From a virus, in the IMG/VR virus record IMGVR_UViG_3300020204_000019, positions 1 through 64,000 of that record: a DNA stretch of 64,000 bases; one strand, 5' to 3'. The notes beneath the pieces were generated by a model. It was not told the origin of the DNA and did no database searches. It saw only the letters and a program-made list of their open reading frames with translations. How positions within the stretch are numbered: the stretch's first letter is position 1; every line of letters begins with the position of its first letter. Of this stretch, positions 11,178-41,912 are shown piece by piece. Made by a program: the position numbers and the translations under genes.

Positions 11178-11221
11178 AAGCGAGTATCCCAAACATCACT
11201 ATCCAATATTAGTGAGGTGAA
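11178..11221 (+). promoter_or_regulatory. GTATCCC-type promoter/leader of the 11248 gene
   Basis: GAGTATCCCAAA (GTATCCC at 11184-11190) lies 58 bases before the start codon and is followed by a hairpin TCACTA...TAGTGA and AGGTGA. It is one of seven matching sites in the window. Confidence 0.5.
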
Positions 11222-11247
11222 CGACCCATCTTAACAAGGATTTTCCC

Positions 11248-11688
11248 ATGTTGGTCAATTGCCCCCATTGTCAGTTGCCTTATGTCAAAGAGCAGTCTTA
11301 TCAGCGTTCCTGCATCTATTGTTGGAGAGAAGAACAAGGACACAAGCTCGGAACCGTGGATGCGGCTTTCCGCCGCCTTCAAGAAGAAGCTAAGAAGAAG
11401 ATCAATACTCCCCCTCTCCAACAGGTTGATATAAGGTCTCCTGACGCTTCGTTACAAATGAAGCTCCAAGCCACACAATTGCTGGTCAATTCTCTCGAAA
11501 AGGAGGTCAGCGAGTTAAAGCGGAAACTCGCTGAACGACCCGTTCCTCCGCCTCCTCCACCCTCTGCTGGTTCTCTCACACAAGATTCTATCCGTGAGTT
11601 AATCACACTTTGTCACCCCGATAAACACTCGAACTCTCCTCTAGCCACCAAGATAACGCAATGGTTAGTTTCTCTTAGGAGAAGATAG
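11248..11688 (+). CDS. Zinc-ribbon, coiled-coil and J-domain-like protein
   Basis: 146 residues. An N-terminal zinc ribbon has CPHC (5-8) and CIYC (22-25). A helical coiled-coil segment follows (about 70-95), then a run of prolines, then a C-terminal J-like motif, IRELITLCHPDKH, with HPD at 123-125 and a helix ending TQWLVSLRRR. HPD is the DnaJ signature that stimulates the ATPase of Hsp70, but only helices II and III of a J domain seem present. The protein may recruit host DnaK for phage assembly or takeover. AAGGA precedes ATG by eight bases, and a GTATCCC-type promoter lies upstream. Confidence 0.65.
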   Translation: MLVNCPHCQLPYVKEQSYQRSCIYCWREEQGHKLGTVDAAFRRLQEEAKKKINTPPLQQVDIRSPDASLQMKLQATQLLVNSLEKEVSELKRKLAERPVPPPPPPSAGSLTQDSIRELITLCHPDKHSNSPLATKITQWLVSLRRR

Positions 11689-11696
11689 GATAAGAA

Positions 11697-11918
11697 ATGA
11701 TAACCTGTGATCTCTGCCAAAAGACCTGTAACGAGTACTATGTACACGAGCTAGCTCCTGATATTATGCTTTGTCCCGTCTGTAGACGGATGAGTGCGGC
11801 AGAAGTCGTGAGACACTATCTTAGTGCCTCATGGTCGAAGTGTCATAAGACAGGATTAGCCTGTAGGACGGGAACCTGTGAAACCTGTAAGGACATTGAG
11901 GTTAGCCAAGAGAAATGA
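11697..11918 (+). CDS. Small double zinc-ribbon protein
   Basis: 73 residues with nine cysteines arranged as CDLC, CPVC and later a CRTGTCETCK cluster, plus histidines, consistent with one or two zinc sites. Such phage zinc ribbons often bind nucleic acid or host RNA polymerase, but no function can be assigned. It starts eight bases after the 11248 gene and its stop overlaps the next start (ATGA), so it belongs to the same operon. Confidence 0.65.
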   Translation: MITCDLCQKTCNEYYVHELAPDIMLCPVCRRMSAAEVVRHYLSASWSKCHKTGLACRTGTCETCKDIEVSQEK

Positions 11919-12373
11919 GTTCTCTCAAAGCGTCGGATACTTCACGCCACTCTGCCGTAGCGGCAGAGAAGGCAATAGAATTCGTGGAGGCTCGCCTTCC
12001 TGAGATACATGACCTGTTCTCCATAGAGAAGGCTAATAATGCCATCAAGGAAGCCCGCGATGCTATCTTATCCGTAGATAGAGCAATCGCGAATGTGGTA
12101 AGGGCATCTCAAGCCTTGGACGAAGCCCGAGCCTCTTTACAAGATGCCGTTCGATCTTGTAGGATCGCGAGCGAAAGAGCTTTCAGTTCCACCCCTGTTA
12201 TCCTATCTGACACAACACCTTCAGAAGACCTTGTTGTCGGGCAGAAGGTGATTGTTCAAAATAGGTACAGAACCACCATATCTGAAGGTTTTGTAACTGA
12301 TGTAAATGACGACTTTGTTTGGGTAAGGGGCGAGATTTTTAGCACGGAAGATCATATCTTCGTAGCCGTGTAA
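11915..12373 (+). CDS. Coiled-coil protein with C-terminal beta domain
   Basis: 152 residues. Residues 10-95 are a long alanine/arginine/glutamate-rich helical region (AIEFVEARLPEIHDLFSIEK ... ARASLQDAVRS). The last 50 residues (VVGQKVIVQNRYRTTISEGF ...) look like a small SH3- or Tudor-like barrel. Function unknown. Overlaps the preceding gene by four bases; the next gene has its own GTATCCC-type promoter. Confidence 0.6.
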   Translation: MSSLKASDTSRHSAVAAEKAIEFVEARLPEIHDLFSIEKANNAIKEARDAILSVDRAIANVVRASQALDEARASLQDAVRSCRIASERAFSSTPVILSDTTPSEDLVVGQKVIVQNRYRTTISEGFVTDVNDDFVWVRGEIFSTEDHIFVAV

Positions 12374-12446
12374 ATAGAGTATCCCAAGGGGGGTTATCCA
12401 TTATTAGTTAGGTGTGAGAGATAGATACCTAACCCCCCCCCAACAA
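12371..12446 (+). promoter_or_regulatory. GTATCCC-type promoter and leader of the 12465 gene
   Basis: AAATAGAGTATCCCAAGG (GTATCCC 12379-12385) is followed by GGGGGGTTATCC, ATTATTAGTTAGG and an ACCTAAC that can pair with GTTAGGT. The minus-strand leader at about 26500-26545 matches over more than 40 positions, including GAGTATCCCAAxGGGGGTT and CCATTATTAGTTAGG, so the pair share an extended element. Confidence 0.6.
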
Positions 12447-12464
12447 AGAGAGAGATAAGACATC

Positions 12465-12707
12465 ATGCAGAACATCAGCTTCAACATCCGTCGCCCCTTC
12501 GGCCCCGTCAGCCTGACCCTCAACACCACCACGGGCGAGGTGACCCGCCAGGGTGATGGGTGGGTTCCCACCACCACCCGCACCCTGCCCCTTGAGGGGC
12601 TGGCGGAGGGGCTGAAGATGTGGGAGGGCGGCAACCTGATCCAGACCTCCCTGCCCCGCCTCCCTGCGGAGGATCGGGAGTGGCTGATGACGGGTCTGAC
12701 GGACTGA
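12465..12707 (+). CDS. GC-rich 80-residue protein, likely highly expressed
   Basis: Unrecognised protein beginning MQNISFNIRRPFGPVSLTLN. Its codons end almost only in G or C (CTG, ACC, GGC, CGC), so GC content is far above that of the surrounding genes. The protein has a beta-rich first half and a helical second half. It sits behind the extended GTATCCC leader and before a strong G/C hairpin. The composition fits either recent acquisition or, since other genes of the same promoter class share the bias, codon adaptation for early strong expression. Confidence 0.65.
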   Translation: MQNISFNIRRPFGPVSLTLNTTTGEVTRQGDGWVPTTTRTLPLEGLAEGLKMWEGGNLIQTSLPRLPAEDREWLMTGLTD

Positions 12708-12713
12708 GAAAGG

Positions 12714-12730
12714 GGGGGGGCAACCCCCCC
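12714..12730 (+). terminator. G7/C7 hairpin between two GC-rich genes
   Basis: Seven G residues and seven C residues flank the three-base loop CAA. No T-run follows, so it may be an mRNA-end stabiliser or attenuator rather than a complete terminator. Confidence 0.4.
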
Positions 12731-12758
12731 ACCAACCAACCCTAAGAAAGGAATACAG

Positions 12759-12977
12759 ATGAAGGTTTATCCCCCCAAGGTGATTAAGGCGGCTGTAGCC
12801 GCCCATGAGGAGACTCTTCTCGGCAAGATTGTCACGCTGATGGGGCGTGAGTTAACCGAAGAGGAGTTGGACACGATCAAGGACTCGATCTACATGATCA
12901 AGATGGATTCACGCGAGTGGGGTGAGGCTCGCGTGTATAAGCGTCATAATCTTGTGACCGAGTATCACGAGGACTGA
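12759..12977 (+). CDS. Hypothetical 72-residue protein
   Basis: ATG is preceded by AAAGGA. The protein is helical and charged (EETLLGKIVTLMGRELTEEE) and ends EYHED. Codon use is GC-biased as in 12465-12707. Function unknown. The stop codon abuts the convergent gene 12978-14030. Confidence 0.6.
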   Translation: MKVYPPKVIKAAVAAHEETLLGKIVTLMGRELTEEELDTIKDSIYMIKMDSREWGEARVYKRHNLVTEYHED

Positions 12978-14030
12978 TCAGCCCTCAAGGTTGGCGAGAT
13001 CGGCAAGTCTAGCTCTCAAGTCCTCGCCCCAAGTAGAGGGAAGCTCGGATAAGGGAGCTATGAAGTAAACCTTGCCCTTAGAAGGCGAGAAGAAAGTGTC
13101 CGTTCCTGCGGATAGTTTTGTATCCATTGCGAAGTAGAGACTTCCGTCTTTACCCGTCATGCCATATTTGATTGGACCGATGTAGTAACGGCTAGAGAAT
13201 GCCTCTACATGGTCAATAATGTCGGCAAACTCGCCCAACATCTGAGTTTTCCTTGTTCTAGCCCCAACGGAAGTACTAACAAAGTCTTTACGGATAGCGG
13301 GAGTAGGTGCAGAGCCTCCTCTCTCATATACGACCACAAATTGGGTCTGTCCCTCAAACATGGCGAGATACTTCTGATAGGAGGCAAGGTTTTTGAACCC
13401 TGATCTATAAATGCCGAGTCCGTCATGGGGAGTAAGGCTCTTTTCACGCAGTTCTCTTTTTACCTCCAAGACCTTATCCAAATCGCCCTTCTTTGTAGCC
13501 CTCTCTAAATCCTTAAGAAGTCCTGCGATGCGGGTAGGCAACGCGGCTTCAAAGTTAAAAGTCCTAGAACCAACCTTACCATCAAGTAGCGGGGAAATGA
13601 CGACTGTGCATTTCTCATCCATATCCTCAGGGCAGATCACATCTTTTACAATGAAGTAAACGGGATTAGCTGGATTGAATCCAAGTGCTTCGCAGTTCTT
13701 CTTATTGGTGGGGTTCACGCACTTAGAAGCATCAACAAGCACAATCTCTCCCACACTTAAAGGACCTCTGACCGCAGAAGGAATATCTGCGGCAGGTTCC
13801 TTAATGGATACTCCGTTACTCACAAGAGCACTCTTCACATTGTTTTCTGTCATGCCGATTGGATTGGATAAAATCGCCCAACAAGCAAAAGCACCCGTGT
13901 CGGCAGGTGAAGCCGACTTATCTACAGATGCTGTGTGTCCCTCTCCCTTCAGGATGGGGATTAGAAAGGGACGGATATCAGGGTTCTCTTTCGCGAGACG
14001 GATAACGGCTTTTCTTAGGTCGTTCATCAT
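12978..14030 (-). CDS. Probable virion-associated protein with LRKAVIRLA leader
   Basis: 350 residues; GGAGTAG precedes ATG. The N-terminus reads MMNDLRKAVIRLAKENPDI and is a basic amphipathic helix of the type that recurs at the front of several proteins in this window. A Cys-containing loop region (DASKCVNPTNKKNCEALG, DVICPEDMDEKC) follows, then a helical linker (AGLLKDLERATKKGDLDKVL) and a beta-rich C-terminus ending in RARLADLANLEG. No enzymatic motif is seen. The leader and long mixed structure suggest a virion or head-packaged protein, with low certainty. It is convergent with 12759-12977. Confidence 0.6.
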   Translation of the reverse strand: MMNDLRKAVIRLAKENPDIRPFLIPILKGEGHTASVDKSASPADTGAFACWAILSNPIGMTENNVKSALVSNGVSIKEPAADIPSAVRGPLSVGEIVLVDASKCVNPTNKKNCEALGFNPANPVYFIVKDVICPEDMDEKCTVVISPLLDGKVGSRTFNFEAALPTRIAGLLKDLERATKKGDLDKVLEVKRELREKSLTPHDGLGIYRSGFKNLASYQKYLAMFEGQTQFVVVYERGGSAPTPAIRKDFVSTSVGARTRKTQMLGEFADIIDHVEAFSSRYYIGPIKYGMTGKDGSLYFAMDTKLSAGTDTFFSPSKGKVYFIAPLSELPSTWGEDLRARLADLANLEG

Positions 14031-14078
14031 CTACTCCAAAGTTGGGTTCAGACATATTCTGTCCCCATAAAAAAAGTA

Positions 14079-14450
14079 TTAAACCGAGGTTATCCGTTCT
14101 AGCTCTGCCTGTAGGTGATATTCGGTATTGGATAGTTGGTTGAGTAGAAGTGCCACGAGTGCATTGTTTAGGTGTGTGGATAGGGGGAAGGCTTTTTGTA
14201 CTTCCACTAGAGAGAGGGAGGGGGTTGTTGTGATTGATGTATGGGCTTGCATTTGAATTTGGCGTTGCGTGTACCAAAGGGCTTTCCTCAGGTCTTCTAG
14301 TGTGTTCTCGCCAGGTTTCTTACCTGCACGGAGGATGTATTTGACGGCTGAACCCAAAGAGAAGTTCAGCCCATACGCCTCAATCACATCAATCGCTTTT
14401 AATCCATTCCCATCGTAGTGATTAGGATTGTTTATCTTTTCATAACTCAT
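14079..14450 (-). CDS. DUF3310-type protein
   Basis: About 123 residues from ATG 14450; further ATGs at 14468 and 14507 are in frame and the ribosome-binding site is weak, so the start is uncertain. The N-terminal part has NPNHYDGNGLKAIDVIEAYG followed by LGSAVKYILRAGKK and LEDLRKALWYTQRQI, the signature of the small DUF3310 family found in many phages and linked, without proof, to nucleotide metabolism. A longer C-terminal tail of about 65 residues is specific to this protein. Divergent from the repeat-protein gene 14506. Confidence 0.75.
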   Translation of the reverse strand: MSYEKINNPNHYDGNGLKAIDVIEAYGLNFSLGSAVKYILRAGKKPGENTLEDLRKALWYTQRQIQMQAHTSITTTPSLSLVEVQKAFPLSTHLNNALVALLLNQLSNTEYHLQAELERITSV

Positions 14451-14505
14451 TAGTAGGCTCTTTATCATTTGTAGTGGTGTGGACATTTCTATTACCGAGG
14501 TCAAC

Positions 14506-16647: not shown

Positions 16648-16700
16648 CTTTTATTCATTTATAATGCTCAATGAATGGATACAACACAAAGGATAGTGCA

Positions 16701-17012
16701 ATGAGAAATGAGATAATCCGCCTCCACAGAAGAATAGCCCGTCTAGAGCGTATTGCAGGTACAACCAAGTCCGCAGGGGGAGTGAAAGAACTCCTTATGG
16801 ATTCGGTGGCAAAGAACAAGAATAAGCTGATTAAGGCGTGGGGGGGCAATCCCAACGATATAGACCTTGAGTTATGGTTTCAAAGTCTAGACGGTGGTGA
16901 TGTCTATGGAGCCCTTAGGGATGCTCCCAACAGGGAGGTTGCCAAGATCATCAAGAACGACATCATCAAACCCATCGAGGATGACTCGATGGATGAGGAT
17001 GTTCCCTTTTAA
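16701..17012 (+). CDS. Small protein with arginine-rich helical leader
   Basis: 103 residues from ATG 16701, chosen for AAAGGA seven bases upstream (an ATG at 16671 is also in frame). The N-terminus MRNEIIRLHRRIARLERIAG resembles the R-x-x-x-L-E-x-R-V-x-R-L-E leader of 5165-5623 and 33659-34051. The body contains AWGGNPNDIDLELWFQSL and an acidic tail (DDSMDEDVPF). Function unknown; probable member of the leader-tagged set. Confidence 0.6.
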   Translation: MRNEIIRLHRRIARLERIAGTTKSAGGVKELLMDSVAKNKNKLIKAWGGNPNDIDLELWFQSLDGGDVYGALRDAPNREVAKIIKNDIIKPIEDDSMDEDVPF

Positions 17013-17782: not shown

Positions 17783-17811
17783 TTTATCTCCAAGGTGGGA
17801 ATTGTGGGTGG

Positions 17812-19107
17812 TTACTTACGGATAGTCACATTGTGCAAGCCGAGAGAGTCTACCTTGCCAATAGACAACTCGACTGACCCGTGAACGGATACCTCTGAAA
17901 AGTCCACCTGAACGAGTGTGAGGTGTATGGGAGCTGTAGCTGGCGTGATCTTGAATGAGCCGAGGAGTACATAATCCTTGGGAGTTGTGGTCTCCACCTT
18001 CGGGATCAAGGGCATATCTTCCACTAGGGTTTCCTTCTCAATCACAGCAGGGGTGGCAGGGAGATCATGCTCAATCTCAGCAGGGGTATCTTCCTCAGTC
18101 TTAGGGGCATCTTCCTCAGTCTTAGGGGCATCTTCCTCAACCGCAGGGGCATCCACATCAATCTCAGCAGGGGCATCCTGCTCAGTCTTAGGGAGATCAT
18201 GCTCAGTCTCAGGGGTGTCCCCTTGGGTGTTTGAAACTCTACGAGATTCGAGAGCCGCGATAGAAGGGAGGTCGGAGGATTTAAGCCCAAAGATGGTATC
18301 GAGGGCAAAGTCCAAAGCCTTCTTCTTTAAGTGAACGCCGCTCGTGAATGTCCAAGACTCTGCGAGAGAGACAAGATTCTCATAGGCAAGAGAAGTGGGG
18401 TCTTTGGATACTTTCTGAAAGAGAGCGAGCATGGTGTAGTATCCGCTTCTGCCCGCATTAGAAGCCCACTCCCTTTCGAGAAAGCTAGATACAGACACAG
18501 ATGGGAGCGATCCATGGTCACGATTAGGATCGTGCTTTAGGATGACCTTCTTGACGAGAGAGAAGTAAATCTTATCCCATTTAGCGACAAGTGACCTCTT
18601 TGAGCCGAGAACATATGGCAGGGACTCGGAGAGTTTGATCCCGATGCCCCACTTATGGGGGAGAGGTAAATGCCACCCGTGCTGTTGGGTGATTTCGTCC
18701 CACATCTCTTCGAGGGACTTATCATCTTCTTCGTGATTTACTTGAGAGATGGGAAGAGAGAGCATCTTACGGATGTCTTTTTCCGCCACAGCCACCTTGT
18801 GTACACACTCAATCCACAGGGTGTCTGATGTGGTGGCGTAATGGATAGCGGCATCGCGTAGGCGGTGGCTGATGTTAGACTTGAGAATAAGGATAAGATC
18901 GGTCTTGACCGATGGCAGTCCCCCCTTGTTGGGGTTAGTGTCCCAACAATGGTGTCCGACGAGGTTCATTTGAACCTCATCGCCTGCGAGTCGGGCATTC
19001 AGTTTGTTGATGAACGCTTCAGCGAACTTCAACTCTGAGCCGAATATGAATGTATTGAGTTCAAGCACGGATGATAACTCCTTGTTTAAGTGTGTCCGTC
19101 TCACCAT
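17812..19107 (-). CDS. Hypothetical protein with acidic repeat linker and shared C-terminal domain
   Basis: 431 residues. The N-terminal 280 residues contain helical segments and DLILILKSNISHRL followed by LWIECVHKVAVAEKDIRKML, which vaguely recalls a nuclease-like core but lacks a clear catalytic set. Residues about 295-370 are an acidic, disordered linker of repeats such as DAPKTEEDAPKTEED. The C-terminus (VHGSVELSIGKVDSLGLHNV) matches that of 17009-17782. The start has no Shine-Dalgarno sequence, and a GTATCCC-type promoter ends only 22 bases upstream, so this mRNA may have a very short leader. Confidence 0.6.
   Translation of the reverse strand: MVRRTHLNKELSSVLELNTFIFGSELKFAEAFINKLNARLAGDEVQMNLVGHHCWDTNPNKGGLPSVKTDLILILKSNISHRLRDAAIHYATTSDTLWIECVHKVAVAEKDIRKMLSLPISQVNHEEDDKSLEEMWDEITQQHGWHLPLPHKWGIGIKLSESLPYVLGSKRSLVAKWDKIYFSLVKKVILKHDPNRDHGSLPSVSVSSFLEREWASNAGRSGYYTMLALFQKVSKDPTSLAYENLVSLAESWTFTSGVHLKKKALDFALDTIFGLKSSDLPSIAALESRRVSNTQGDTPETEHDLPKTEQDAPAEIDVDAPAVEEDAPKTEEDAPKTEEDTPAEIEHDLPATPAVIEKETLVEDMPLIPKVETTTPKDYVLLGSFKITPATAPIHLTLVQVDFSEVSVHGSVELSIGKVDSLGLHNVTIRK
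18040..18215. repeat. Imperfect tandem repeats coding an acidic linker
   Basis: Units of 24 bases around CTCAGTCTTAGGGGCATCTT recur about seven times with substitutions. They are in frame with 17812-19107 and encode D-A/L/T-P-K/A-T/E-E repeats. Such arrays change length readily by slippage. Confidence 0.75.
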
Positions 19108-19128: not shown

Positions 19129-19145
19129 GGGATACTCTTTTTAAA
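19129..19145 (-). promoter_or_regulatory. GTATCCC-type promoter of the 19107 gene
   Basis: On the minus strand AAAAAGAGTATCCCAACC precedes the start codon by about 22 bases. It matches the other sites in the AT-rich upstream part and GTATCCCA core but has no long leader. Confidence 0.5.
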
Positions 19146-26268: not shown

Positions 26269-26475
26269 CTAGTCTTCCGTGGGCAAGTCGCCCACAAAGA
26301 AGTACCCCGTCCCACCACCCTTATTCAGCCACTCGTCAAGGAGGGCGTGGAGCATACCCCGCGTCTTGTCATCAGGGTTGACCGCCACGAACCCAAAATC
26401 CGAATGGACACCCTCGCCGTCCTCGCGGGTGTACTGAATCTCGCCGTGAACAATGGGGACTTCGATGTTCTTCAT
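26269..26475 (-). CDS. GC-rich 68-residue protein, likely highly expressed
   Basis: Unrecognised protein (MKNIEVPIVHGEIQYTREDG ... FGFVAVNPDDKTRGMLHALL ... GYFFVGDLPTED). Codons end mostly in G or C, in contrast with its neighbours and like 12465-12707, with which it also shares a leader of more than 40 matching positions around GTATCCC. A terminator isolates it as a single-gene transcript. Confidence 0.65.
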   Translation of the reverse strand: MKNIEVPIVHGEIQYTREDGEGVHSDFGFVAVNPDDKTRGMLHALLDEWLNKGGGTGYFFVGDLPTED

Positions 26476-26497: not shown

Positions 26498-26550
26498 CAG
26501 GGGTCTCGCCTAACTAATAATGGAGAACCCCCTTTGGGATACTCTAAAGA
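26498..26550 (-). promoter_or_regulatory. GTATCCC-type promoter and leader of the 26475 gene
   Basis: On the minus strand CTTTAGAGTATCCCAAAG (core 26542-26536) is followed by GGGGGTTCTCC, ATTATTAGTTAGG and CGAGACC. This is nearly the same as the leader of 12465-12707 on the other strand 14 kb away. Confidence 0.6.
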
Positions 26551-27762: not shown

Positions 27763-28863
27763 ATGTTTAAGACTTCTATGATCCGCAGAGCCTTTTTGAT
27801 GCGTCAGGCTGCCCACAAGCATCTCATGAAGAATGCAGGGCCTTTGACGGATGTGAGTCATCTCCGCCATCAGGCTGTGTTTTTGATGGGTGCTCCCGGT
27901 TCAGGTAAGGGATTCGTCAGCAAGAGGCTGTATCTCAAGTATATGCCCGGTGGCGGTGCTGGTGGCTCTTTAGACCCCCAAATGTTTCAGCGTGAGCTTT
28001 CGGAGCAAGAGAGAGGACTCACCAACCTAAACTTTGAGAGCGTCAGAGACCGTATTGAGACTTATGGTTTTAGGTTAGAGGTGAATGAGGGGGGGAATTC
28101 CGCGACTATCCCTTTCCGCATTTATGACAACAACGAAGTCCTTATTCCGAGAGACCAATGGGAGGAGAAGGCTCCTGATATTGTCGATATGATTGAGGGA
28201 CTAGAAGAAGTGGTTTTCGCAGCCCCCAAGCATGAGCTTCCCTCATATTGGAGAGTTGTAGACCCTGATATGTACAAGGAAGAGCTTGAAGGCTACTTAG
28301 AGACCAAGCCTGGTTATGTTCACGAAATGTCTTCTGAGATGTCCAAGGCGTACTTCGAGGCGGCTATTGCCACAGGTGACCCCGTTATCGTTGACGGCAC
28401 GGGTGCAAAAGCTGCCAAGTATGTCGAACAAATTAAAGTCGCAAGAGATGCTGGCTACAGCATCACACTTGTTTGGATTTATGTGCCTCTTGTCGCCAAC
28501 ATCATCCGTAACTGCACAAGAGCTAGAGTTGTGCATATCAGCCATGTGACTCGCCTCTTTAAGCAGATGGCGATTACTTGGAAAGCCTTAAGCCCCTATC
28601 TCGATAAATCAAAGGTGATTAATACCTTTGACCCTAGCTCTTCGGGTGGTGATGCTAAGTCCTACCTCTCAAAGAAGAGCCTTGTGGACGGATATGTCCA
28701 AGAGCATATGGGATATCCTGATCTCTACACCTATATGACCCAATCGCCCGATGTCCCTCAGGATCAGAAAGACCTAGCGATGGGACTGAGATGGCTAAGT
28801 GGTGGAGCGATGAGCGATAAAGAAAGACGGATGCAGGAACTCCGCAATAAGTTTAACCGTTAA
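27763..28863 (+). CDS. Zeta-toxin-like P-loop kinase
   Basis: 366 residues. The N-terminus MFKTSMIRRAFLMRQAAHKH is basic and helical like other leaders in the window. A Walker A motif MGAPGSGKG lies at 42-50; later IVDGTGAKAAKYVEQIKVAR, a VWIYVPLVANIIRNCTRARV segment and an arginine cluster follow the order of zeta-toxin/polynucleotide-kinase-type P-loop proteins. Zeta toxins phosphorylate UDP-N-acetylglucosamine; phage relatives are usually annotated only by fold, so the substrate is unknown. No antitoxin gene is adjacent. AAAGGTAG lies before ATG. Plus-strand singleton between minus-strand genes. Confidence 0.7.
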   Translation: MFKTSMIRRAFLMRQAAHKHLMKNAGPLTDVSHLRHQAVFLMGAPGSGKGFVSKRLYLKYMPGGGAGGSLDPQMFQRELSEQERGLTNLNFESVRDRIETYGFRLEVNEGGNSATIPFRIYDNNEVLIPRDQWEEKAPDIVDMIEGLEEVVFAAPKHELPSYWRVVDPDMYKEELEGYLETKPGYVHEMSSEMSKAYFEAAIATGDPVIVDGTGAKAAKYVEQIKVARDAGYSITLVWIYVPLVANIIRNCTRARVVHISHVTRLFKQMAITWKALSPYLDKSKVINTFDPSSSGGDAKSYLSKKSLVDGYVQEHMGYPDLYTYMTQSPDVPQDQKDLAMGLRWLSGGAMSDKERRMQELRNKFNR

Positions 28864-28911
28864 TAAATCAGCCCCCTCCTCCCCGCTAATAAATCAGTCC
28901 CCCTCCGTCCA
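28862..28911. repeat. Short direct repeat after the kinase gene
   Basis: TAATAAATCAGCCCCCTCC and TAATAAATCAGTCCCCCTCC occur 28 bases apart. The second copy overlaps the end of the minus-strand gene at 28886. A small duplication at the junction of two convergent genes. Confidence 0.6.
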
Positions 28912-29263
28912 ACGGACTGCCCTCATTAAAAAAGAACACAAGTTCCTTCGCAAGATAGCCGAGTAAGAACAAATCAAACGAATCGGCAAAATGACGGTGT
29001 TCTATCTTTGAGTATGTCCTCTCATATATCCGATATATCCTAGGCATATCACCTCGATAGATACGCCTAAATTCCTCGTTGAATACTTTATAAAAGTAGT
29101 TCCCCCAAGTAGGACGGACAAGCATCTTAGATGCAAACTCCTCCTCCAACATCTCAAGAACTAGGTTCTCTGTCTCCCTATAGTACTGAAAACTCTCCAT
29201 CTTCGCATAAACATCCTCCCTAGTAAGAAGCGGGGTCTGCTTTTTATTCGATCTCCTGTACAT
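28886..29263 (-). CDS. Hypothetical 125-residue protein
   Basis: AGGAG precedes ATG. The protein is helical and rich in aromatic and charged residues (MESFQYYRETENLVLEMLEE, PRIYRIYERTYSKIEHRHFA, LFLLGYLAKELVFFF). The last segment is hydrophobic but interrupted by charges. No known domain. Last gene of the minus-strand run 31066-28886. Confidence 0.55.
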   Translation of the reverse strand: MYRRSNKKQTPLLTREDVYAKMESFQYYRETENLVLEMLEEEFASKMLVRPTWGNYFYKVFNEEFRRIYRGDMPRIYRIYERTYSKIEHRHFADSFDLFLLGYLAKELVFFFNEGSPLDGGGLIY

Positions 29264-31315: not shown

Positions 31316-31398
31316 CCAACACTTAGTTCGAAAGCCTGTTCTTTCAGCTTGAAGGCTCCCCGCTCCATCTCCATTATTTCTCGGATATGGAAGCCATG
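31298..31398 (-). pseudogene. Truncated 3' copy of 29845-30183 (repeat copy B)
   Basis: Reads REIMEMERGAFKLKEQAF and ELSVGWAKTDS on the minus strand before running into a stop about ten codons later. It has no start of its own and its upstream edge is joined to the 3' end of the Dcm gene, whose last codons and stop read through it in another frame. Confidence 0.8.
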
Positions 31399-32573
31399 TG
31401 TTCTTTCAAGGAGTGTTTGATATTCTTGGCAATTTCTTGAAAGATAACAGTAGGAACCGATTCACCAAGCGATTGCCTAATCTTAAGCTCTTCTTTTTTT
31501 AAGAATTTTGTTTTATCAGCCAATGAGAGATTGTTTAGATATTCTAAATCATGAACTGCCCATTTGAAAGATGATGGAACCGTCATCATGCACATCAACT
31601 CTCGGATACTAAATACGCGGTCATCCGCAGGATGTATCGTATTTTGACTAGCGAGTTGGTCATTTCGAGTGTGAATGCAAGGGCCAATTTTATCCCAATA
31701 TTGACGCTTATATTTGTCACCATTTTTTTGTTGATTAATAACAATGCTTCCGTCTTTCACTTGGTGTGGTTTTTTATGATTGTCCTTGTTTTCAAATGCA
31801 GATTGCCCCTCTTTTAAATCACAAATCCACTCCCTCATGTGTTTTGGATAGACTCTAAAAGCATGATAAATATCATTTGAGTCAATTTCTCCGAGGATTT
31901 TAAGTGGTCTTAGGTGACCGATTACCTCTCTTAAAGTATTCTCTTTTTTTAACGATGGATATAAGTCATATGGTGATATATCATCTGCTAACTCATTCAA
32001 AACGCCAATAACTAATGTTCTTTGCCTACTTGAGCACGCTCCATGATTTTTGAAATTTATTGTTTTGGATATGTAAGAGTATTGTCCACCCAAGGCGTTT
32101 TTAATTGCACTCTCAATCGTTTTGTCCACATAATCAATATCCGTACAAATGGTTTTCATAAAAGCTGGGACATTTTCAAATATAAAAATTCTCGGCTTAA
32201 TTTTACTGATTAGTTTAATAGACTCTACCACCAAAGAATTTCTAATAATTTCATCACCTTTCTTATTATGATTGGCGACCGACATCCCTTGGCAAGGTGG
32301 AGTTGCGATAACAACATCAATCTGATTAACTTTCTCTTTTTTTTCCCACAGATCAATTTCTGCGATCACTTGAGATTTGATTTCATCAGTAGATATGTCC
32401 CCATAGATATATCCACTTCCATACTTACACTTAGTATTAAATCTTTGAATATCCAATCGTCTTTGAATTAATTCATTAGTAGCTACGCATTCAAAACCCT
32501 CTGATTTAAAACCATAACATCCGATGCCCGCACCGCTGAAAAGACTAATATATGTTAGTTTGTTTTTTTTCAT
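31374..32573 (-). CDS. dcm: C5-cytosine DNA methyltransferase
   Basis: 399 residues from ATG 32573 (GGAG 11 bases upstream; a start at 32642 is also in frame). The ordered motifs of DNA (cytosine-5) methylases are present: LFSGAGIG (motif I, 11-18), TPPCQGMS (motif IV, catalytic Cys94), FENVP (motif VI, 132-136) and GACSSRQR (motif VIII). The target-recognition region lies at about 240-330. The gene is markedly more AT-rich than its neighbours and its last 25 bases lie in a duplicated fragment of another gene, so it is probably a recent arrival. No partner restriction enzyme is adjacent, so a protective (anti-restriction) role is likely; the recognition sequence cannot be read from the protein. 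Confidence 0.9.
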   Translation of the reverse strand: MKKNKLTYISLFSGAGIGCYGFKSEGFECVATNELIQRRLDIQRFNTKCKYGSGYIYGDISTDEIKSQVIAEIDLWEKKEKVNQIDVVIATPPCQGMSVANHNKKGDEIIRNSLVVESIKLISKIKPRIFIFENVPAFMKTICTDIDYVDKTIESAIKNALGGQYSYISKTINFKNHGACSSRQRTLVIGVLNELADDISPYDLYPSLKKENTLREVIGHLRPLKILGEIDSNDIYHAFRVYPKHMREWICDLKEGQSAFENKDNHKKPHQVKDGSIVINQQKNGDKYKRQYWDKIGPCIHTRNDQLASQNTIHPADDRVFSIRELMCMMTVPSSFKWAVHDLEYLNNLSLADKTKFLKKEELKIRQSLGESVPTVIFQEIAKNIKHSLKEHMASISEK

Positions 32574-32675
32574 TTGTCTGTTTCTCCGTCGTTCGGTTGT
32601 GGGGGCTTTAACAACTAGGTTCAGTATAGTCTGAACACTCATAGGTCTTTCGTTCGGGTTCTCATTTCTTATGAA

Positions 32676-32749
32676 TGGGCAATCTGGGGCTTGAACCCAG
32701 GACCGACCGTTTATGAGACGGGTGCTCTAACCAACTGAGCTAAATGCCC
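32676..32749 (-). tRNA. tRNA-Met (anticodon CAT)
   Basis: Cloverleaf with acceptor GGGCATT/ATTGCCC (one T-T mismatch), D-arm GCTC/GAGC, anticodon stem CCCGT/ACGGT with loop CTCATAA, T-arm CTGGG TTCAAGC CCCAG, discriminator A. CAT may read ATG or, if modified, ATA; the 1-72 G-C pair argues for an elongator type. Confidence 0.92.
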
Positions 32750-32845
32750 TTAGATTCAATGTCCCATCTGACTGTGCCGCTTCTATACGGCTGCCACCAG
32801 ATTGTACGATTTAAGCTGAGGTTCACGACCGTAGGGAACATCGAG

Positions 32846-32919
<74 letters not shown>

Positions 32920-32967
32920 TTATATGAATACTATACCACGCCGGCGGGGGCGTTATAACATTTCAAA

Positions 32968-33049
32968 TGCCCAAGGTCGGACTTGAACCGACACTCCCGA
33001 AGGAAACGGATTTTGAATCCGCCGCGTCTACCAATTCCACCACTCGGGC
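32968..33049 (-). tRNA. tRNA-Leu (anticodon CAA)
   Basis: Acceptor GCCCGAG/CTTGGGC, anticodon stem GCGGA/TCCGT with loop TTCAAAA, a long variable arm (about 12 bases, TTCCTTCGGGAG) as expected of leucine tRNAs, and T-arm GTCGG TTCAAGT CCGAC. It reads TTG, the leucine codon that precedes GAT in the enriched word TTGGATA. Confidence 0.92.
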
Positions 33050-34491: not shown

Positions 34492-34872
34492 TTATTCCTT
34501 TTCAGGTGCGGTTTGGATAACCAAACCATCTAAGTCCATGAGGTCAACAGGTTCATCAAAAGACGGCTCATCGGGTACCTCAGGGATAAAGTCGAAAAGC
34601 CCCTGAGTTTCGTTCATCCAATCCTCGTACTTCTCTGCCTTGTCGGACTCGTGCCAAGAGTCCGACAACCCATCAAAGTAGTCTTGCTGTGCGTCTACCA
34701 CATCTTGGATGGCGTTGATGAGGTCGTCACTCTTGGACGAGACCTGCAAGAGAAGGTTCTCCAACTTGTCCCGAGCCTCAGCGAGGGCTGTGTTGTATGC
34801 CTCGATAGAGGCGTTGAGGTCAGCGAATCCATTTTGGATATCCTTTTGCTGTGCCATATTGAACTTGATCAT
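34492..34872 (-). CDS. Coiled-coil acidic protein
   Basis: 126 residues; GGGGAG lies seven bases before ATG 34872. The first 70 residues are helical heptads (GFADLNASIEAYNTALAEAR, LENLLLQVSSKSDDLINAIQ), the rest is acidic and proline-containing (FIPEVPDEPSFDEPVDLMDL). Codons are GC-biased and a GTATCCC-type promoter lies upstream, so strong early expression is likely. Could be a host-takeover or DNA-mimic protein; that is speculation. Confidence 0.6.
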   Translation of the reverse strand: MIKFNMAQQKDIQNGFADLNASIEAYNTALAEARDKLENLLLQVSSKSDDLINAIQDVVDAQQDYFDGLSDSWHESDKAEKYEDWMNETQGLFDFIPEVPDEPSFDEPVDLMDLDGLVIQTAPEKE

Positions 34873-35853: not shown

Positions 35854-35946
35854 GGAGGTTCCTTAACGCTTTAGACTTTTTATAGTGGTTTATACCACAC
35901 CCATCCATTAGGGGTATGTCCCTAGTCCATCAGTTCTGAGTGTTTT

Positions 35947-36600: not shown

Positions 36601-36688
36601 GTTATTCCTCCGTTGTGTGTTCTCTTACATATAGGAATTGTAATGGTTCTATGAATCCTAAAAGGTATCTCGATATTAGGTGAGAAAT

Positions 36689-38605
36689 ATGAAATACGCA
36701 TACAGAACACCCAAGTTATTTAGCCTACAGCCTCTTCTTAGGCTGTTTAGATCGAAAGGTATTGGATACTCCGTCGACAGGTTCAAGGGTGAAAGGGAAG
36801 ACCGTTTCTTTTCGGTTATTTCAGTTGCCTTAAACGCTGAGGATTGGATAGTTCGCCCGCAGGCTATAGGATTAAAGAGCGAAGAAGGCTTAGAGTTTAT
36901 GGATATTAGATTTACTAAGGTGAACTACAAGAAGTTCCACGAGTACATGATGGAGACCAAGGCTGAGTTAGCTCTCCCCCGTTTGGAAGATAGCTACATG
37001 GAACAGCGAGTAGAACTATCCAAAGAAGTCTTGATTGTTGTAGTGCGTGAGGACAGATCAGGATATAGGGGTATTTCAAATCTAATGGAGGATTGGGGCA
37101 TCCGCACGGATCGACTTCTAAAAACCAAAGCTCTTTTACTTAAAAAGGCTGAGGGTGAGTCTATTGAACAAGACTTAAGGGGAGTACCTGCCACGGATAT
37201 TTCGGGTAATACTTCAGCTAAGGAAGATAAAGCCATCGACCAAAGGTTCATTCAACCGATGCTTGAAAAGCATCGGCTCTCTGCTGAGATAATGGAAAAG
37301 AAGGCAGGTATTTTCAAAACGCACAAATCGAGTTTTGGTCGTCGGATTATTGCCGCCACCCACTCTTATTCCAAAACAACGGGGCGACCCCTGTATGTAG
37401 AGTTGGACAACATACTTGGAGATACCTCCATAAACTACGCGGGCTCTTTACTAGAGAGATATGCCTGTCAGCACCTATCGGAAACTACGCTGCCCGATTT
37501 CCTTTTAAAGGCAGAGCTAGAACTGAAAGACGCTATCTATTTACCATCAGGGCGGAAAAGAAATGAGAGTGTCTATGACGAGATGGCTAAGAAGATAAAG
37601 AAAGATACCGAGGAAAGTCTAAAGGCTTGGCTCGATCTCAATGGTGTACAACTTGGTCTCTCAATGGATACTTTTATCGACAGGGGCTTCCGTTCAACTG
37701 CAACGGAATATCTCTCAAGATTGAGAGATAAGATATCCGTAGCAATCAAGCCCAAAAGGAAACTCGTAGATGGCATCCCTGATATGTACGAAACTAAGAC
37801 TAAATCTGAGTACATATCAGGACTAATGGAGCTAAATGGATTACTTGGTGGACACACAGACATAGAAACAGAAATAGCAAGGGCGGAGGGACACCCACAT
37901 TTAGTTTACGCCAGCCATGTACCCAAATCCATATTGGAACTGAACAAGACGGAAATGGTTAAGAGACAGGAAAAAGATGAAACCATACTTCTCGACACAC
38001 TTACTTCCCTTACACCTCAAACAATAGCCCCTCAAACAATAACAAGGGATGGACATAACCTTATCGTGTGTTCGGAGTATCCGGGTTTTGGAGTTATTTA
38101 TGATGAGTTAGGTGTTACGCCTGAGAAGGTTCATTTGGAGGGGATTTTTTATGCTCTGAAAATCATGAGCCACTATACGGATAAAAGGGTGATACAGCTC
38201 AAATATGAGAAGGGAGTTAGGGCAAACTATCTTGTGGCGGGATTGGGGGGGTTAGGTAGAATTGAAATGGATAGAAAAGATGACCTAAGAGTTGCTATCC
38301 ATGAGGCGATGCACGCACTTGAATGGCACTCTCCGTCTATATGTTCCCTTGTGACAGCGTTTTGTGCTAGTCGCTTCAATCCTTTCGAGGAAAAGAACAT
38401 AGGGAGAGGCGAAAAAGCCTTCTCAGGTCTTTGGGATATTTACGCAGGTAAAATGTATGATGGCGATACAATGAGTGAGTTTATTACAATGGGGGTTCAG
38501 GAGTTCAGAAGTGCAAAAACAATCGTAGGACTCGCTAAGAAAGACTACCCACACTTCCTCTTTACCCACGCTCTAGTCACAGGGAAGCTGAAGGAATATC
38601 TATGA
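36689..38605 (+). CDS. Third zincin metalloprotease
   Basis: 638 residues from ATG 36689 (AGGTGAG six bases upstream; GTG 36680 possible). The zinc motif AIHEAMHALEWHS places His538, Glu539 and His542; SEFITMG downstream may give the third ligand. The N-terminus (MKYAYRTPKLFSLQPLLRLF) is basic and hydrophobic. A long central helical region (residues 150-450, e.g. LLKAELELKDAIYL, EMAKKIKKDTEESLKAWLDL) precedes the protease domain. Compared with the zincins at 8646 and 19700 only the HExxH region and the general design (long N-terminus, protease towards the end or middle) agree. The next gene overlaps the stop by four bases. A weak 5-bp hairpin (CCTAA/TTAGG) touches the ribosome-binding site. 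Confidence 0.72.
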   Translation: MKYAYRTPKLFSLQPLLRLFRSKGIGYSVDRFKGEREDRFFSVISVALNAEDWIVRPQAIGLKSEEGLEFMDIRFTKVNYKKFHEYMMETKAELALPRLEDSYMEQRVELSKEVLIVVVREDRSGYRGISNLMEDWGIRTDRLLKTKALLLKKAEGESIEQDLRGVPATDISGNTSAKEDKAIDQRFIQPMLEKHRLSAEIMEKKAGIFKTHKSSFGRRIIAATHSYSKTTGRPLYVELDNILGDTSINYAGSLLERYACQHLSETTLPDFLLKAELELKDAIYLPSGRKRNESVYDEMAKKIKKDTEESLKAWLDLNGVQLGLSMDTFIDRGFRSTATEYLSRLRDKISVAIKPKRKLVDGIPDMYETKTKSEYISGLMELNGLLGGHTDIETEIARAEGHPHLVYASHVPKSILELNKTEMVKRQEKDETILLDTLTSLTPQTIAPQTITRDGHNLIVCSEYPGFGVIYDELGVTPEKVHLEGIFYALKIMSHYTDKRVIQLKYEKGVRANYLVAGLGGLGRIEMDRKDDLRVAIHEAMHALEWHSPSICSLVTAFCASRFNPFEEKNIGRGEKAFSGLWDIYAGKMYDGDTMSEFITMGVQEFRSAKTIVGLAKKDYPHFLFTHALVTGKLKEYL

Positions 38606-38910
38606 CCACCACCACTATCCATTTTCGGTACGGAAGTGTGAAAGCCCAAGTCTTAATCTTTTACAGCGATCCGTTTATGATTGAGGGTTATGAGTTCTCA
38701 GGGGATGGGACAATCATAAACATCTACAAAAGCAAACTAGGGGGAGAACCTTCAGGTTACTTCATCGGTTCTGCCTCTGTAGATAACATAGAATACTTCA
38801 TCAATGCGGCATATGATGCCAAAAGAGATTTCGAGCGGCTAGAGTATGCCATAGTCAACCCTCCCAACCTTAGCAGGAACAACTCAGACAACCCTGATGC
38901 CGTCTACTAA
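38602..38910 (+). CDS. Hypothetical 102-residue protein coupled to the protease
   Basis: Its ATG overlaps the stop of the metalloprotease gene (ATGA). The sequence (MTTTTIHFRYGSVKAQVLIF ... YEFSGDGTIINIYKSKLGGE) is beta-rich with a helical end and unrecognised. A small gene directly coupled to a protease gene also occurs at 10703, which may indicate a recurring protease-partner arrangement. Confidence 0.55.
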   Translation: MTTTTIHFRYGSVKAQVLIFYSDPFMIEGYEFSGDGTIINIYKSKLGGEPSGYFIGSASVDNIEYFINAAYDAKRDFERLEYAIVNPPNLSRNNSDNPDAVY

Positions 38911-38989
38911 GGATAGCTGATTAATAGTTTGTTTATGGGGGTACTCAAACGGATACTAACCCTCCCGACCCTTTTGAGGTACACAGAGT

Positions 38990-39376
38990 ATGCCCCTAGT
39001 TCATCAGCACATTGTGATTCGTTCCCATGTCATGAAGCCTCCCATGAGCGAGGAACAGACGAAGAATTGGCTCAAAGAGCTTATTTCCAAGATTGACATG
39101 AAGATTCTTAATGGACCTCATGCGACATATTTGGATAAAGAGGGAAATAGGGGCGTAACAGGGGTCTGCATTATTGAGACTTCTCATATCGCCATCCATG
39201 TGTGGGACGAGGAGTCACCGGGGCTGATTCAGCTTGATGTGTACTCATGTAAGGACTTCGATAAGGAAGTGGTATTTGACCACTTCAAGTGTTTCGAGCC
39301 TGTGTCCACCGAGTGGTTCATGCTCGACCGCACGGACAAGCTGTCCATCACGGATGATATTCAGGCAAAGAAATAA
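38990..39376 (+). CDS. speD: S-adenosylmethionine decarboxylase-like protein
   Basis: 128 residues, the length of the small prokaryotic AdoMetDC. The core GVCIIETSHIAIHVWDE (58-74) matches the region around the self-cleavage serine of SpeD (Ser65, followed by His66, with His70), and LDVYSCKDFD supplies the conserved Cys87. In the known family the residue before the serine is glutamate; here it is threonine, so autocatalytic formation of the pyruvoyl cofactor is not certain. The enzyme makes decarboxylated AdoMet for spermidine synthesis; phage polyamines can neutralise packaged DNA. SpeD genes are known in marine cyanophages. Confidence 0.8.
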   Translation: MPLVHQHIVIRSHVMKPPMSEEQTKNWLKELISKIDMKILNGPHATYLDKEGNRGVTGVCIIETSHIAIHVWDEESPGLIQLDVYSCKDFDKEVVFDHFKCFEPVSTEWFMLDRTDKLSITDDIQAKK

Positions 39377-39379
39377 GAA

Positions 39380-39985
39380 ATGGCAGACGGAGAGTGCATA
39401 ATAGGGGGTGATGTATCTCTCGTCTTTTGGAAAGATGGCGGATGGTATGCTGATGGGGAGTATCTAACGGACGATATAGGGAAGTGCAAAATCCTCCCAT
39501 CGAGTGAAGACAGGAAGATTGTCTTATCGGTGGGAGAACCTCCCCGCATATTTGTCCCCAAGAAGTTACCTGAGCCTGAGCCTGAGCCTGTGAGGGCAAT
39601 TGAGAAATCGTCCGTTCAAGAGGTTCAGCCCATAGCGGAAGTACTTCAGGTGGTAGAGGACACTATTTTAGAGAAAGTTTTGGATAAACTAGGCGACAAT
39701 CCATTAGCTGTTGTTGTCGCGATTGGATTTGTGGTCTTTAAGAAGATGATCGAGGGTAAACAGACCAAATCTGAAAGTGAAATGGATAAAAGGTGTAGCG
39801 GTCGTCATCAGGGTTCAGATGTTCAGACCAAAGAGCTAGAGAAGCAGGTTGAAGATTTGAAACAGAGATTGGAAGAAGTGAGTTCTAACTACGAGCTAAG
39901 TAAATCTAGCTCTGTGTCCCGCAGGGATTACAACAAGCTACTTGATCGGATGGAAGCACTTGAAAATTTATTGGATAAAAAATAG
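39380..39985 (+). CDS. Membrane/coiled-coil protein, paralogue of 3237
   Basis: 201 residues. A small N-terminal domain with tryptophans (LVFWKDGGWYADGEYLTDDI), a PEPEPEP linker, a hydrophobic segment at about 107-121 (NPLAVVVAIGFVVFKKM), the motif CSGRHQGS and a coiled coil (VQTKELEKQVEDLKQRLEE) follow the same order as in 3237-4172. Both probably sit in a membrane by a single helix, with the coil on one side. Three bases after speD, so cotranscribed. Function unknown. Confidence 0.6.
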   Translation: MADGECIIGGDVSLVFWKDGGWYADGEYLTDDIGKCKILPSSEDRKIVLSVGEPPRIFVPKKLPEPEPEPVRAIEKSSVQEVQPIAEVLQVVEDTILEKVLDKLGDNPLAVVVAIGFVVFKKMIEGKQTKSESEMDKRCSGRHQGSDVQTKELEKQVEDLKQRLEEVSSNYELSKSSSVSRRDYNKLLDRMEALENLLDKK

Positions 39986-39990
39986 TCAGC

Positions 39991-40770
39991 TTATAGCGTA
40001 TCTGTACTAAGGCTTAGGACTACAAAATCTTCGCTTTTGACCCCTATTTGACACTCGATGAGCCAATCAATAAACATCTTTCCATCAACTAGGGCGATGG
40101 GTTTATTATCTTTACGGCTGGCTTCTTCAATTGCCTCTTTGGTGAAGCCCGAGGTGCAGATGATCATCCCGCTTTCATGCTTGAGGCTTCCTCTTAGCTC
40201 CCTAACTTCCTTTGATCCGACTTTGTTTTTCCCTGCGTATCTCTTAACCTGTATAGCAACCTCAGTATTGATTAAGCCTATATAAATGGCTCTTATGTCT
40301 ATACCCTTATCTTTAGTGGGTGGTGTGACTCGAACATCACGACAGCCCTTTCGAGACAAGACACCTGCCACAAAATGTTCAAACTGAGTCCCATTATACT
40401 TACCCAATACATTATCCAAAAGTTGCTTTCTTACCTTGTCGTTGTGGGCTTTGATCTCAGATAAGAAGTTGTCTTGGTGAGGGTGAGCGGGGGACGGCTT
40501 TGGATTGGTCTTGGGAGTCTTGGTGGTGGGGGGGTGGGTAGCCTGAGCGGTTTTTATCCAATAAAGACCTGCCTTATCTAAGGTGAAGTCGCCATGCCTC
40601 TTCATGTGCTTATACAAAGCGGCTTGGATTGTAGCTTTGGGTCTCTTTCCGCCCAAGGGGGGAGACCCCTTCTTTTCTAGAATCTTATCCGTGAGGTCAT
40701 CGAGAGTCAGACCTTGAGATTGTTCTTGGAGAACCTTGATGGCGAGGGAAACATAGGAGTCTTGTTGCAT
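39991..40770 (-). CDS. Mrr-like restriction endonuclease
   Basis: 259 residues. Residues 1-75 are a winged-helix (HARE-HTH-like) domain, VSLAIKVLQEQSQGLTLDDL. After a Pro/Thr/Lys linker, residues 125-240 are an Mrr catalytic domain: FEHFVAGVLSRKGCRDVRVT, GIDIRAIY (Asp148), VAIQVKRY (Gln164, Lys166; QxK form), and IICTSGFTKEAIEEA. Mrr enzymes cut methylated DNA. In this phage it may destroy host or rival DNA; the phage's own methylases would have to avoid the target. A GTATCCC-type promoter with hairpin leader lies upstream. Confidence 0.82.
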   Translation of the reverse strand: MQQDSYVSLAIKVLQEQSQGLTLDDLTDKILEKKGSPPLGGKRPKATIQAALYKHMKRHGDFTLDKAGLYWIKTAQATHPPTTKTPKTNPKPSPAHPHQDNFLSEIKAHNDKVRKQLLDNVLGKYNGTQFEHFVAGVLSRKGCRDVRVTPPTKDKGIDIRAIYIGLINTEVAIQVKRYAGKNKVGSKEVRELRGSLKHESGMIICTSGFTKEAIEEASRKDNKPIALVDGKMFIDWLIECQIGVKSEDFVVLSLSTDTL

Positions 40771-40843
40771 AATGGAGGTAACTTCTCTTTTGGATTTTGG
40801 GTTCTATCTCTCACTCGCCATACAATAATTGTATAACCCGAAT

Positions 40844-40862
40844 GGGATACTAAATATAAGTG
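40844..40862 (-). promoter_or_regulatory. GTATCCC-type promoter of the 40770 gene
   Basis: On the minus strand TTATATTTAGTATCCCATTC lies 74 bases before the start, followed by hairpin ATACAAT/ATTGTAT in the leader. Confidence 0.5.
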
Positions 40863-40901
40863 TTTTACTAGGGAAGTGTTCCCCCGTTGGGGATCGCTCT
40901 T

Positions 40902-41768
40902 TCAGTATCCGAAATCGGTGGGGTTTTGGGCGATGACCTTTTCGATCACTTCGATGTGTTTCTTTAGGTGTATGGTGGTGATGCCTTTAGCCTCAGCCCA
41001 CTCTTGGTGGGTTTGATAGGTGCCTTCGACCTTATCACGATATATTCCATATCGGATAAGACCTGTCTCCTGACCGAACTTGGAGGTGAGGAGGTGTTTG
41101 ACATGATTTGAGATGGAATCAGCTTCAGCTAGCTTTTCAGCTTCGGAGGTGTAGTCGTAAAAGTAGTCTACTTCGGTGTTTTCGGGGTTATCCTCGTCCA
41201 CCTTTGTCACCACTTTAGCGGAGTCTTCGGACTGATAGTGATACCGAGAACCACGCTTACACTCTTGTTGAGTCTTACGCCCGCGTTGGCGTTGCAGGGC
41301 ATCTTGTCCCTCGACCATACTTGCCCGCCACACGAACTGCTTAAAATGGTAGAAGATTGAGTTTTGTGTGGGTTCTTTGCCTTTATCCACCATAGCGGAA
41401 AGATTGTTCTTGTCGCAGATGAAGACGATAAAATCTTGAAAATAATCTTCCAAGTCGCCTAGAGCAAAGTTTATAGCTGTGTCCCTGCCCCCATGACGGA
41501 GGCAAAACTCTCTCAGCTTTTCGTAGTTGGCGGACTTTCCGTCATACAGCCACTTCTCTGTGGAGTTGTAAGTCCTCCTTGAGGGGCGGTTTTTAGGCGG
41601 TTGGATCGTGACAACCTGATACGACTCAATCTCGTTGAACATGGTGTCGAAAATCGAGTCTTTATTTTCAAGGGCTTTGATCTGAGCCTCTAGAGCTTTG
41701 ATCTGAGCCTCCACCTTCGCCGCTTCCTCCCGCTTCCCAAAAAGGTCTTGCCGCAGTTTCTCTAACAC
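40902..41768 (-). CDS. Sigma-factor-like protein
   Basis: 288 residues from GTG 41768 (GGAG eight bases upstream). An N-terminal coiled coil (VEAQIKALEAQIKALENKDS) precedes a region resembling sigma region 2: ALGDLEDYFQDFIVFICDKN, then FYHFKQFVWRASMVEGQDAL with QRQRGRKTQ. An acidic linker and a C-terminal helix-turn-helix (THQEWAEAKGITTIHLKKHI) occupy the position of region 4. The overall order is that of ECF-type sigma factors, at low sequence identity. It carries the longest GTATCCC-type leader (127 bases), so it might direct transcription of its own class. Alternative: a DNA-binding protein without sigma activity. Confidence 0.5.
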   Translation of the reverse strand: MLEKLRQDLFGKREEAAKVEAQIKALEAQIKALENKDSIFDTMFNEIESYQVVTIQPPKNRPSRRTYNSTEKWLYDGKSANYEKLREFCLRHGGRDTAINFALGDLEDYFQDFIVFICDKNNLSAMVDKGKEPTQNSIFYHFKQFVWRASMVEGQDALQRQRGRKTQQECKRGSRYHYQSEDSAKVVTKVDEDNPENTEVDYFYDYTSEAEKLAEADSISNHVKHLLTSKFGQETGLIRYGIYRDKVEGTYQTHQEWAEAKGITTIHLKKHIEVIEKVIAQNPTDFGY

Positions 41769-41894
41769 GATGGTCTCCTCATAGAGAGGGTTAGTTGTGC
41801 CTCATATGGTTGGTCACCGAGACACGGGGGGTAGCACCTAGTCTACACAGGGTAGGTGGTGTCAGTCAACACTAATCATGTTAGTTGGGGGTGT

Positions 41895-41912
41895 GGGATA
41901 CTTTTTTTCTGT
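41895..41912 (-). promoter_or_regulatory. GTATCCC-type promoter of the 41768 gene
   Basis: On the minus strand AGAAAAAAAGTATCCCACAC is followed by a leader with CCAACTAACATGATTAGTG and two further short inverted repeats. The 41769-41953 gap holds only this leader and the start region of the divergent 41954 gene. Confidence 0.5.

What the first reader, a model, noticed from the sequence alone, without database searches (positions are those of the whole stretch)
11178..41912. A conserved GTATCCCA promoter/leader element on both strands
Seven sites (GTATCCC near 11184, 12379, and on the minus strand near 19129, 26536, 34934, 40844, 41895) each lie 22-127 bases before a start codon. Most have A/T-rich sequence directly upstream, and most are followed by a leader hairpin. 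The leaders at 12.4 and 26.5 kb agree over more than 40 positions although their proteins differ. The genes include the GC-biased small proteins, Mrr-like nuclease and the sigma-like gene. It looks like a phage promoter class with RNA-stabilising 5' hairpins.
Basis: seen in the sequence. Interest (0 to 1): 0.72.

Follow-up and report, generated by a model that had tools for sequence, protein, structure and literature searches.

The report
Two-box promoter class of huge phages
The repeated GTATCCCA word is the upstream half of a two-part promoter that a very large bacterial virus uses to switch on many small non-structural genes, most likely read by the host's RNA polymerase carrying a sigma factor that the virus itself encodes; the proposed stabilising RNA hairpins are not there.

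Summary
GTATCCCA is real at all seven places, but it is only half of the element. The full element is (G/T)TATCCCAA, then TATTAG 15 bases after TATCCCA, then a G-rich start. In a 131-kb stretch of this phage and a 290-kb relative, TATCCCA-N15-TATTAG occurs 7 and 19 times exactly; at spacings 5-13 and 17-25 it never occurs. In the relative, 30 of 31 sites are intergenic; upstream of orthologous genes both boxes are kept while the first G is not. This is a phage promoter class. No RNA polymerase beta subunit was found, but an ECF-like sigma factor is encoded (record 76885-77511), so phage sigma on host polymerase is the best mechanism (inferred). Two more distant huge phages with sigma homologues have promoter classes of similar layout but other boxes; in LR745208.1, CTAAAA-N15-CCGATAG occurs 41 times and resembles the flagellar sigma-28 consensus. 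Leader hairpins are not above chance (mean z -0.27 and +0.08). GTATCCC alone is not above background, because TATCC is over-represented genome-wide. New variant of a known kind.

The parts
11184..11212 (+). Two-box promoter, strong (GTATCCCA ... TATTAG, spacer 15); upstream of the 146-aa gene 11248-11688
   Evidence: 34.4 bits
12379..12407 (+). Two-box promoter, strong; upstream of the 80-aa gene 12465-12707
   Evidence: 36.0 bits
19107..19135 (-). Two-box promoter, weaker (box 2 is TATAAA); upstream of the 418-aa gene 17812-19068; ortholog in G007 has TATCCCAA-TATTAA at the same place
   Evidence: 19.1 bits
17812..19068 (-). 418-aa target gene, start corrected to the GTG at 19068 (the ATG at 19107 lies in box 2)
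   Evidence: G007 ortholog 47% identical from residue 1
26514..26542 (-). Two-box promoter, strong; upstream of the 68-aa gene 26269-26475
   Evidence: 34.1 bits
34912..34940 (-). Two-box promoter, strong (box 2 is CATTAG); upstream of the 126-aa gene 34492-34872
   Evidence: 29.2 bits
40822..40850 (-). Two-box promoter, weak variant (box 2 is TATTGT); upstream of the Mrr-type nuclease gene 39991-40770
   Evidence: Mrr_cat 3.2e-27, HARE-HTH 4.7e-9
41872..41901 (-). Two-box promoter, weak variant (spacer 16, GATTAG); upstream of gene 40902-41768; no match was found upstream of its ortholog in G007
40902..41768 (-).
318..325 (-). Decoy: exact GTATCCCA without box 2, on the strand opposite ORF 177-683

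Best explanation
The element is a phage-specific two-box promoter: a -35-like box (G/T)TATCCCAA, a -10-like box TATTAG starting 15 bases after TATCCCA, and a start site in the G-rich stretch some 5-8 bases further on, giving leaders of mostly 20-50 bases that end in a ribosome site. It drives many small, non-structural genes scattered on both strands. Shown: sequence, fixed geometry, intergenic placement, conservation upstream of orthologous genes. Inferred: the start site; and that it is read by the host RNA polymerase carrying a phage-encoded ECF-like sigma factor (record 76885-77511, minus strand, 208 aa, outside the window), which would be made first from another promoter and would then switch this gene set on.
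For: Exact pair at spacing 15: 7 and 19 times, none at spacings 5-13 and 17-25; Markov expectation 0.0. Both boxes kept upstream of orthologous genes in a relative with 71% DNA identity in aligned stretches. 30 of 31 sites intergenic in G007 and 29 of these followed by a suitably placed start codon; 14 of 14 intergenic here. No RNA polymerase beta subunit in four records; sigma region 2 match in both phages and ECF sigmas as most of the best fold matches. Sigma gene has no such promoter of its own in the upstream sequence read. Distant phages with sigma homologues have two-box classes of the same build.
Against: No transcript data. The sigma match is weak (Pfam 17-19 bits, below cut-off; fold E 4e-3 at best on a pLDDT 56 model). 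Other candidate factors exist (the 288-aa protein; a conserved double-HTH protein). G013, whose sigma homologue is 48% identical, shows only a weak motif. The small target genes look early, when a phage sigma would not yet be present unless packaged.
Confidence: 0.65

Rival explanations
1. The same promoters are read by the host's own (primary or alternative) sigma factor, as early phage promoters usually are.
For: The genes driven are small accessory genes typical of early regions. In LR745208.1 the corresponding class resembles the bacterial sigma-28 consensus (consensus from memory). The host is unknown.
Against: The boxes fit no housekeeping consensus known to me; a scan of 84,980 genomes with a strict form gave seven single hits in seven genomes, fewer than chance expects; the boxes differ between related phages while a sigma homologue is encoded in each.
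Confidence: 0.2
2. TATCCCAA is the site of a phage activator (MotA-like) that works with host sigma at a TATTAG -10 box, rather than a -35 box read by a sigma.
For: Box 1 is longer and far less variable than usual -35 boxes; a conserved double-HTH protein with sigma region-4-like repeats is encoded by G007, by G011 (another contig of this phage) and, twice, by LR745208.1.
Against: Spacing of 15-16 bases is normal for sigma promoters; TATTAG departs from TATAAT, and there is no excess of sigma-70 pairs at spacing 17.
Confidence: 0.12
3. An RNA element: GTATCCCA plus hairpin acts in the transcript (stabiliser, translational switch) or as a hairpin promoter of an N4-type polymerase.
For: Inverted repeats of 4-6 bp span box 2 at 11184, 34940, 40850, 41901 and 81645.
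Against: Leader z -0.27 and +0.08; mean stem across box 2 equals shuffles in this phage (3.29 against 3.19); hairpins not kept in G007; no Rfam match. A single-subunit polymerase was not searched for specifically.
Confidence: 0.03

Closest known systems
phiEco32 and 7-11 phage sigma factors with their middle/late promoters (PMC4331800)
   Same: Phage-encoded sigma redirects host polymerase to a phage-specific promoter class found between genes; no phage polymerase.
   Different: Their motif is a single short -10-type block (TAATGTATA; TGTGATGTTATA); here there are two boxes at a fixed spacing and a G-rich start.
Jumbo phages with sigma factors and no RNA polymerase (group 2 of PMC7824862)
   Same: Sigma encoded, polymerase absent; host polymerase use proposed.
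   Different: The passages read there name RpoD-like and single-HTH sigmas and no promoter class; here the sigma is ECF-like in build and a promoter class is defined.
Flagellar sigma-28 (FliA) promoters, TAAA-N15-GCCGATAA (from memory)
   Same: Nearly the same as the class found in LR745208.1, including spacing.
   Different: The window phage has other boxes.
T4 middle promoters (MotA box plus -10; from memory)
   Same: Phage-specific upstream box with a -10.
   Different: Spacing and both boxes differ; no MotA or AsiA homologue was looked for specifically.

Membership tests
Phage-sigma-dependent promoter class | Recurrent two-box motif at fixed spacing | tested here: met
   Exact pairs only at spacings 14-16, almost all at 15
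Phage-sigma-dependent promoter class | Lies between genes at a leader's distance before start codons | tested here: met
Phage-sigma-dependent promoter class | Conserved upstream of orthologous genes in a relative | tested here: met
   5 of 8 orthologs
Phage-sigma-dependent promoter class | The phage encodes a sigma factor | tested here: inconclusive
   Sigma70_r2 matches below cut-off in both phages; fold hits mostly ECF sigmas but weak
Phage-sigma-dependent promoter class | That sigma starts transcription at these sites | not testable with these tools
   needs in vitro transcription or 5' end mapping
Sigma-70 housekeeping promoter | TTGACA-N17-TATAAT | tested here: not met
   Consensus differs; no excess of TTGACA/TATAAT pairs at spacing 17 in either phage
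RNA leader element | Leader folds better than shuffled sequence and structure is conserved | tested here: not met
   mean z -0.27 and +0.08; no Rfam match
N4-type hairpin promoter | Conserved inverted repeat at every site | tested here: not met
   stem lengths as in shuffles in this phage
Multisubunit phage RNA polymerase promoter (phiKZ, AR9) | Phage encodes beta/beta' subunits | tested here: not met
   PF00562 absent from G000, G007, G011 and LR745208.1; G000 and G011 are fragments; beta' not searched

The most novel reading that the evidence does not exclude
A lineage of huge phages without RNA polymerase carries one orthologous, diverging ECF-like sigma factor, and each phage has its own two-box promoter class with about 15-base spacing and a -10 ending in TAG followed by G's (TATCCCAA/TATTAG; CTAAAA/CCGATAG; CTAAT/CGGTTAG), so that the sigma and its set of promoters have co-diverged; in one member the promoter has the form of the bacterial flagellar sigma-28 consensus.
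Probability: 0.4. Interest if true: 0.68.

Novelty: new variant of a known kind. Interest (0 to 1): 0.5.

Why it matters
It gives a sequence-level regulon for huge phages known only from metagenomes: one can list which genes are switched on together. Phages with diverged sigmas and diverged boxes form a natural set for reading how a sigma factor and dozens of promoters change together, testable in vitro with purified proteins and short DNA.

Tried and rejected
Counting GTATCCC alone (not above 3rd/4th-order background). RNA families (only tRNAs at gathering level; nothing at the sites). Hairpin leader. Multisubunit RNA polymerase of the phage (beta subunit absent). Window boxes in LR745208.1, G013 and G014: none. 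G013 gave only a weak motif (CCCCC-N10-TTGATATAA, about five sites). Literature: no phage paper found with TATCCCAA.

Full report
What was checked. The window is the first 64 kb of a 108,527-base viral record (G000). It is a contractile-tailed phage (baseplate genes at 43.6-48 kb) and probably a fragment of a huge phage: its 1,100-aa baseplate protein matches over its whole length a 485-kb huge phage, LR745208.1 (38%), and a 290-kb contig, G007 (IMGVR 3300008261_000001, 76%). A near-identical contig adds 22.4 kb of upstream sequence, so a 131-kb stretch could be studied.

The observation. All seven GTATCCCA sites exist. GTATCCC alone is not more frequent in the window than a 3rd/4th-order Markov model predicts (16 against 15.4 and 18.5), because the pentamer TATCC is three to four times over-represented in this genome and in G007. 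A relaxed search showed instead that the sites share a second block at a fixed distance.

The element. In G007 the regions upstream of five orthologous target genes hold TATCCCAA followed, 15 bases after TATCCCA, by TATTAG or a one-base variant of it. Searching that pair: exact matches at spacing 15 number 7 (131 kb) and 19 (G007); spacings 14 and 16 add one or two; at spacings 5-13 and 17-25 there are none. Consensus: in this phage G-TATCCCAA-N14-TATTAGT.aGGtG; in G007 T-TATCCCAA-N14-TATTAGtgGGgg, with A/T-rich sequence just upstream (76% in the last 12 bases in G007, 61% here). A weight matrix separates ten strong sites (29-40 bits) from two weaker ones (19.1, 14.9) and from noise (13.9 and below) in the 131 kb; the ten are among the sequences it was built from. 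In the window the strong ones are 11184, 12379, 26542 and 34940; 19135 is weaker but has an orthologous counterpart; 40850 and 41901 are weak variants. A divergent imperfect site, 75584 minus, was missed by the exact word.

Placement. In G007, 30 of 31 sites with at most one mismatch are intergenic, in a genome 10.7% intergenic by a home-made gene caller, and 29 of these 30 are followed by a start codon with a ribosome-site-like sequence 57-114 bases downstream. In this phage 14 of 14 sites are intergenic. Targets include an Mrr nuclease, an ATP-dependent DNA ligase and a transglycosylase-like protein, a MoxR-like ATPase and many small unknown proteins; no site lies in the baseplate region in either phage. 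A second, single-box motif TTTATA(C/G) lies about 40-70 bases before other genes, among them large ones and the G007 counterpart of the first gene of the baseplate operon. It may be the late class; this is inference.

Hairpins. Leaders from the inferred start to the start codon fold no better than dinucleotide shuffles (mean z -0.27 here, +0.08 in G007), and stems across box 2 are no longer than in shuffles in this phage. A few sites do have inverted repeats across box 2; most do not.

Who reads it. No beta subunit of RNA polymerase was found in this record, G007, another contig of this phage (G011) or LR745208.1. A 208-aa protein (record 76885-77511, minus) matches Sigma70 region 2 weakly but in both phages; its model (pLDDT 56) has ECF sigma factors (SigH, SigE, AlgU and others) as most of its best PDB hits, with E from 4e-3. 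Its region 2 is identical over about 70 residues in the two phages that share the boxes (75% overall). Homologues occur in LR745208.1, G013 (297 kb) and G014 (266 kb). De novo pair counting in LR745208.1 found CTAAAA-N15-CCGATAG: 41 exact at spacing 15, 1 at 14, 3 at 16 and none at other spacings from 8 to 22, close to the flagellar sigma-28 consensus as I recall it. G014 has about eleven CTAA(T/G)...CGGTTAGG sites of the same build. G013 shows only a weak motif. So a sigma homologue and a clear two-box class go together in four of five phages; that this sigma reads these boxes is inference.

Rivals. A host sigma remains possible, because the host is unknown and the targets look early. A strict scan of 84,980 genomes found seven single hits in seven genomes, and neither phage shows an excess of sigma-70 pairs at spacing 17. 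Activator-dependent reading is possible, since other HTH proteins are conserved.

Verdict.

Noticed in passing
Whole record (G000 plus flank), G011 and relative G007 (290 kb): A dispersed word, TTATCC(A/G)(A/T)(T/A)A, is hugely over-represented: TATCCAAT 111 against 5.5 expected in 131 kb, 258 against 10.8 in G007; both strands, coding and intergenic alike, random spacing. TATCCA is kept at 44% of aligned places between the two phages against a mean of 17% for hexamers (rank 3 of 1,517), so it looks selected. Not a DnaA box; absent from G013, G014 and not among the top words of LR745208.1. Unexplained.
   Followed up: partly
window 11184 and 12379; record 81645 and 95839 minus; G003 906: In this phage the same TATCC word sits at one fixed place in the promoter spacer just before box 2 at five of 14 sites; in G007 it does so at about one of 28. 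Possibly an overlapping binding site.
   Followed up: no
LR745208.1 (loci L020, L112-L115, L127-L131): A 485-kb huge phage carries 45 promoters of the form CTAAAA-N14-16-CCGATAG, close to the flagellar sigma-28 consensus, clustered in the first third of the record.
   Followed up: partly
G007 111380-111989; G011 28623-29189; LR745208.1 near 154165 and 420015: A conserved protein with two sigma region-4-like HTH units, a possible activator or sigma partner.
   Followed up: no
record 55336; G007 237128, 78770, 125317 and others: A second, single-box motif TTTATA(C/G) lies about 40-70 bases before other genes, including very large ones and the head of the baseplate operon: a candidate late promoter class.
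   Followed up: partly
window 31374-32642; 32676-33049: A C5 cytosine DNA methylase gene and three tRNA genes, Met, Arg and Leu.
   Followed up: no
G007 58783 minus and 58860 plus: Two of these promoters about 80 bases apart drive, divergently, a MoxR-like AAA ATPase and a 402-aa protein that looks CobT-like by eye (no Pfam match).
   Followed up: no
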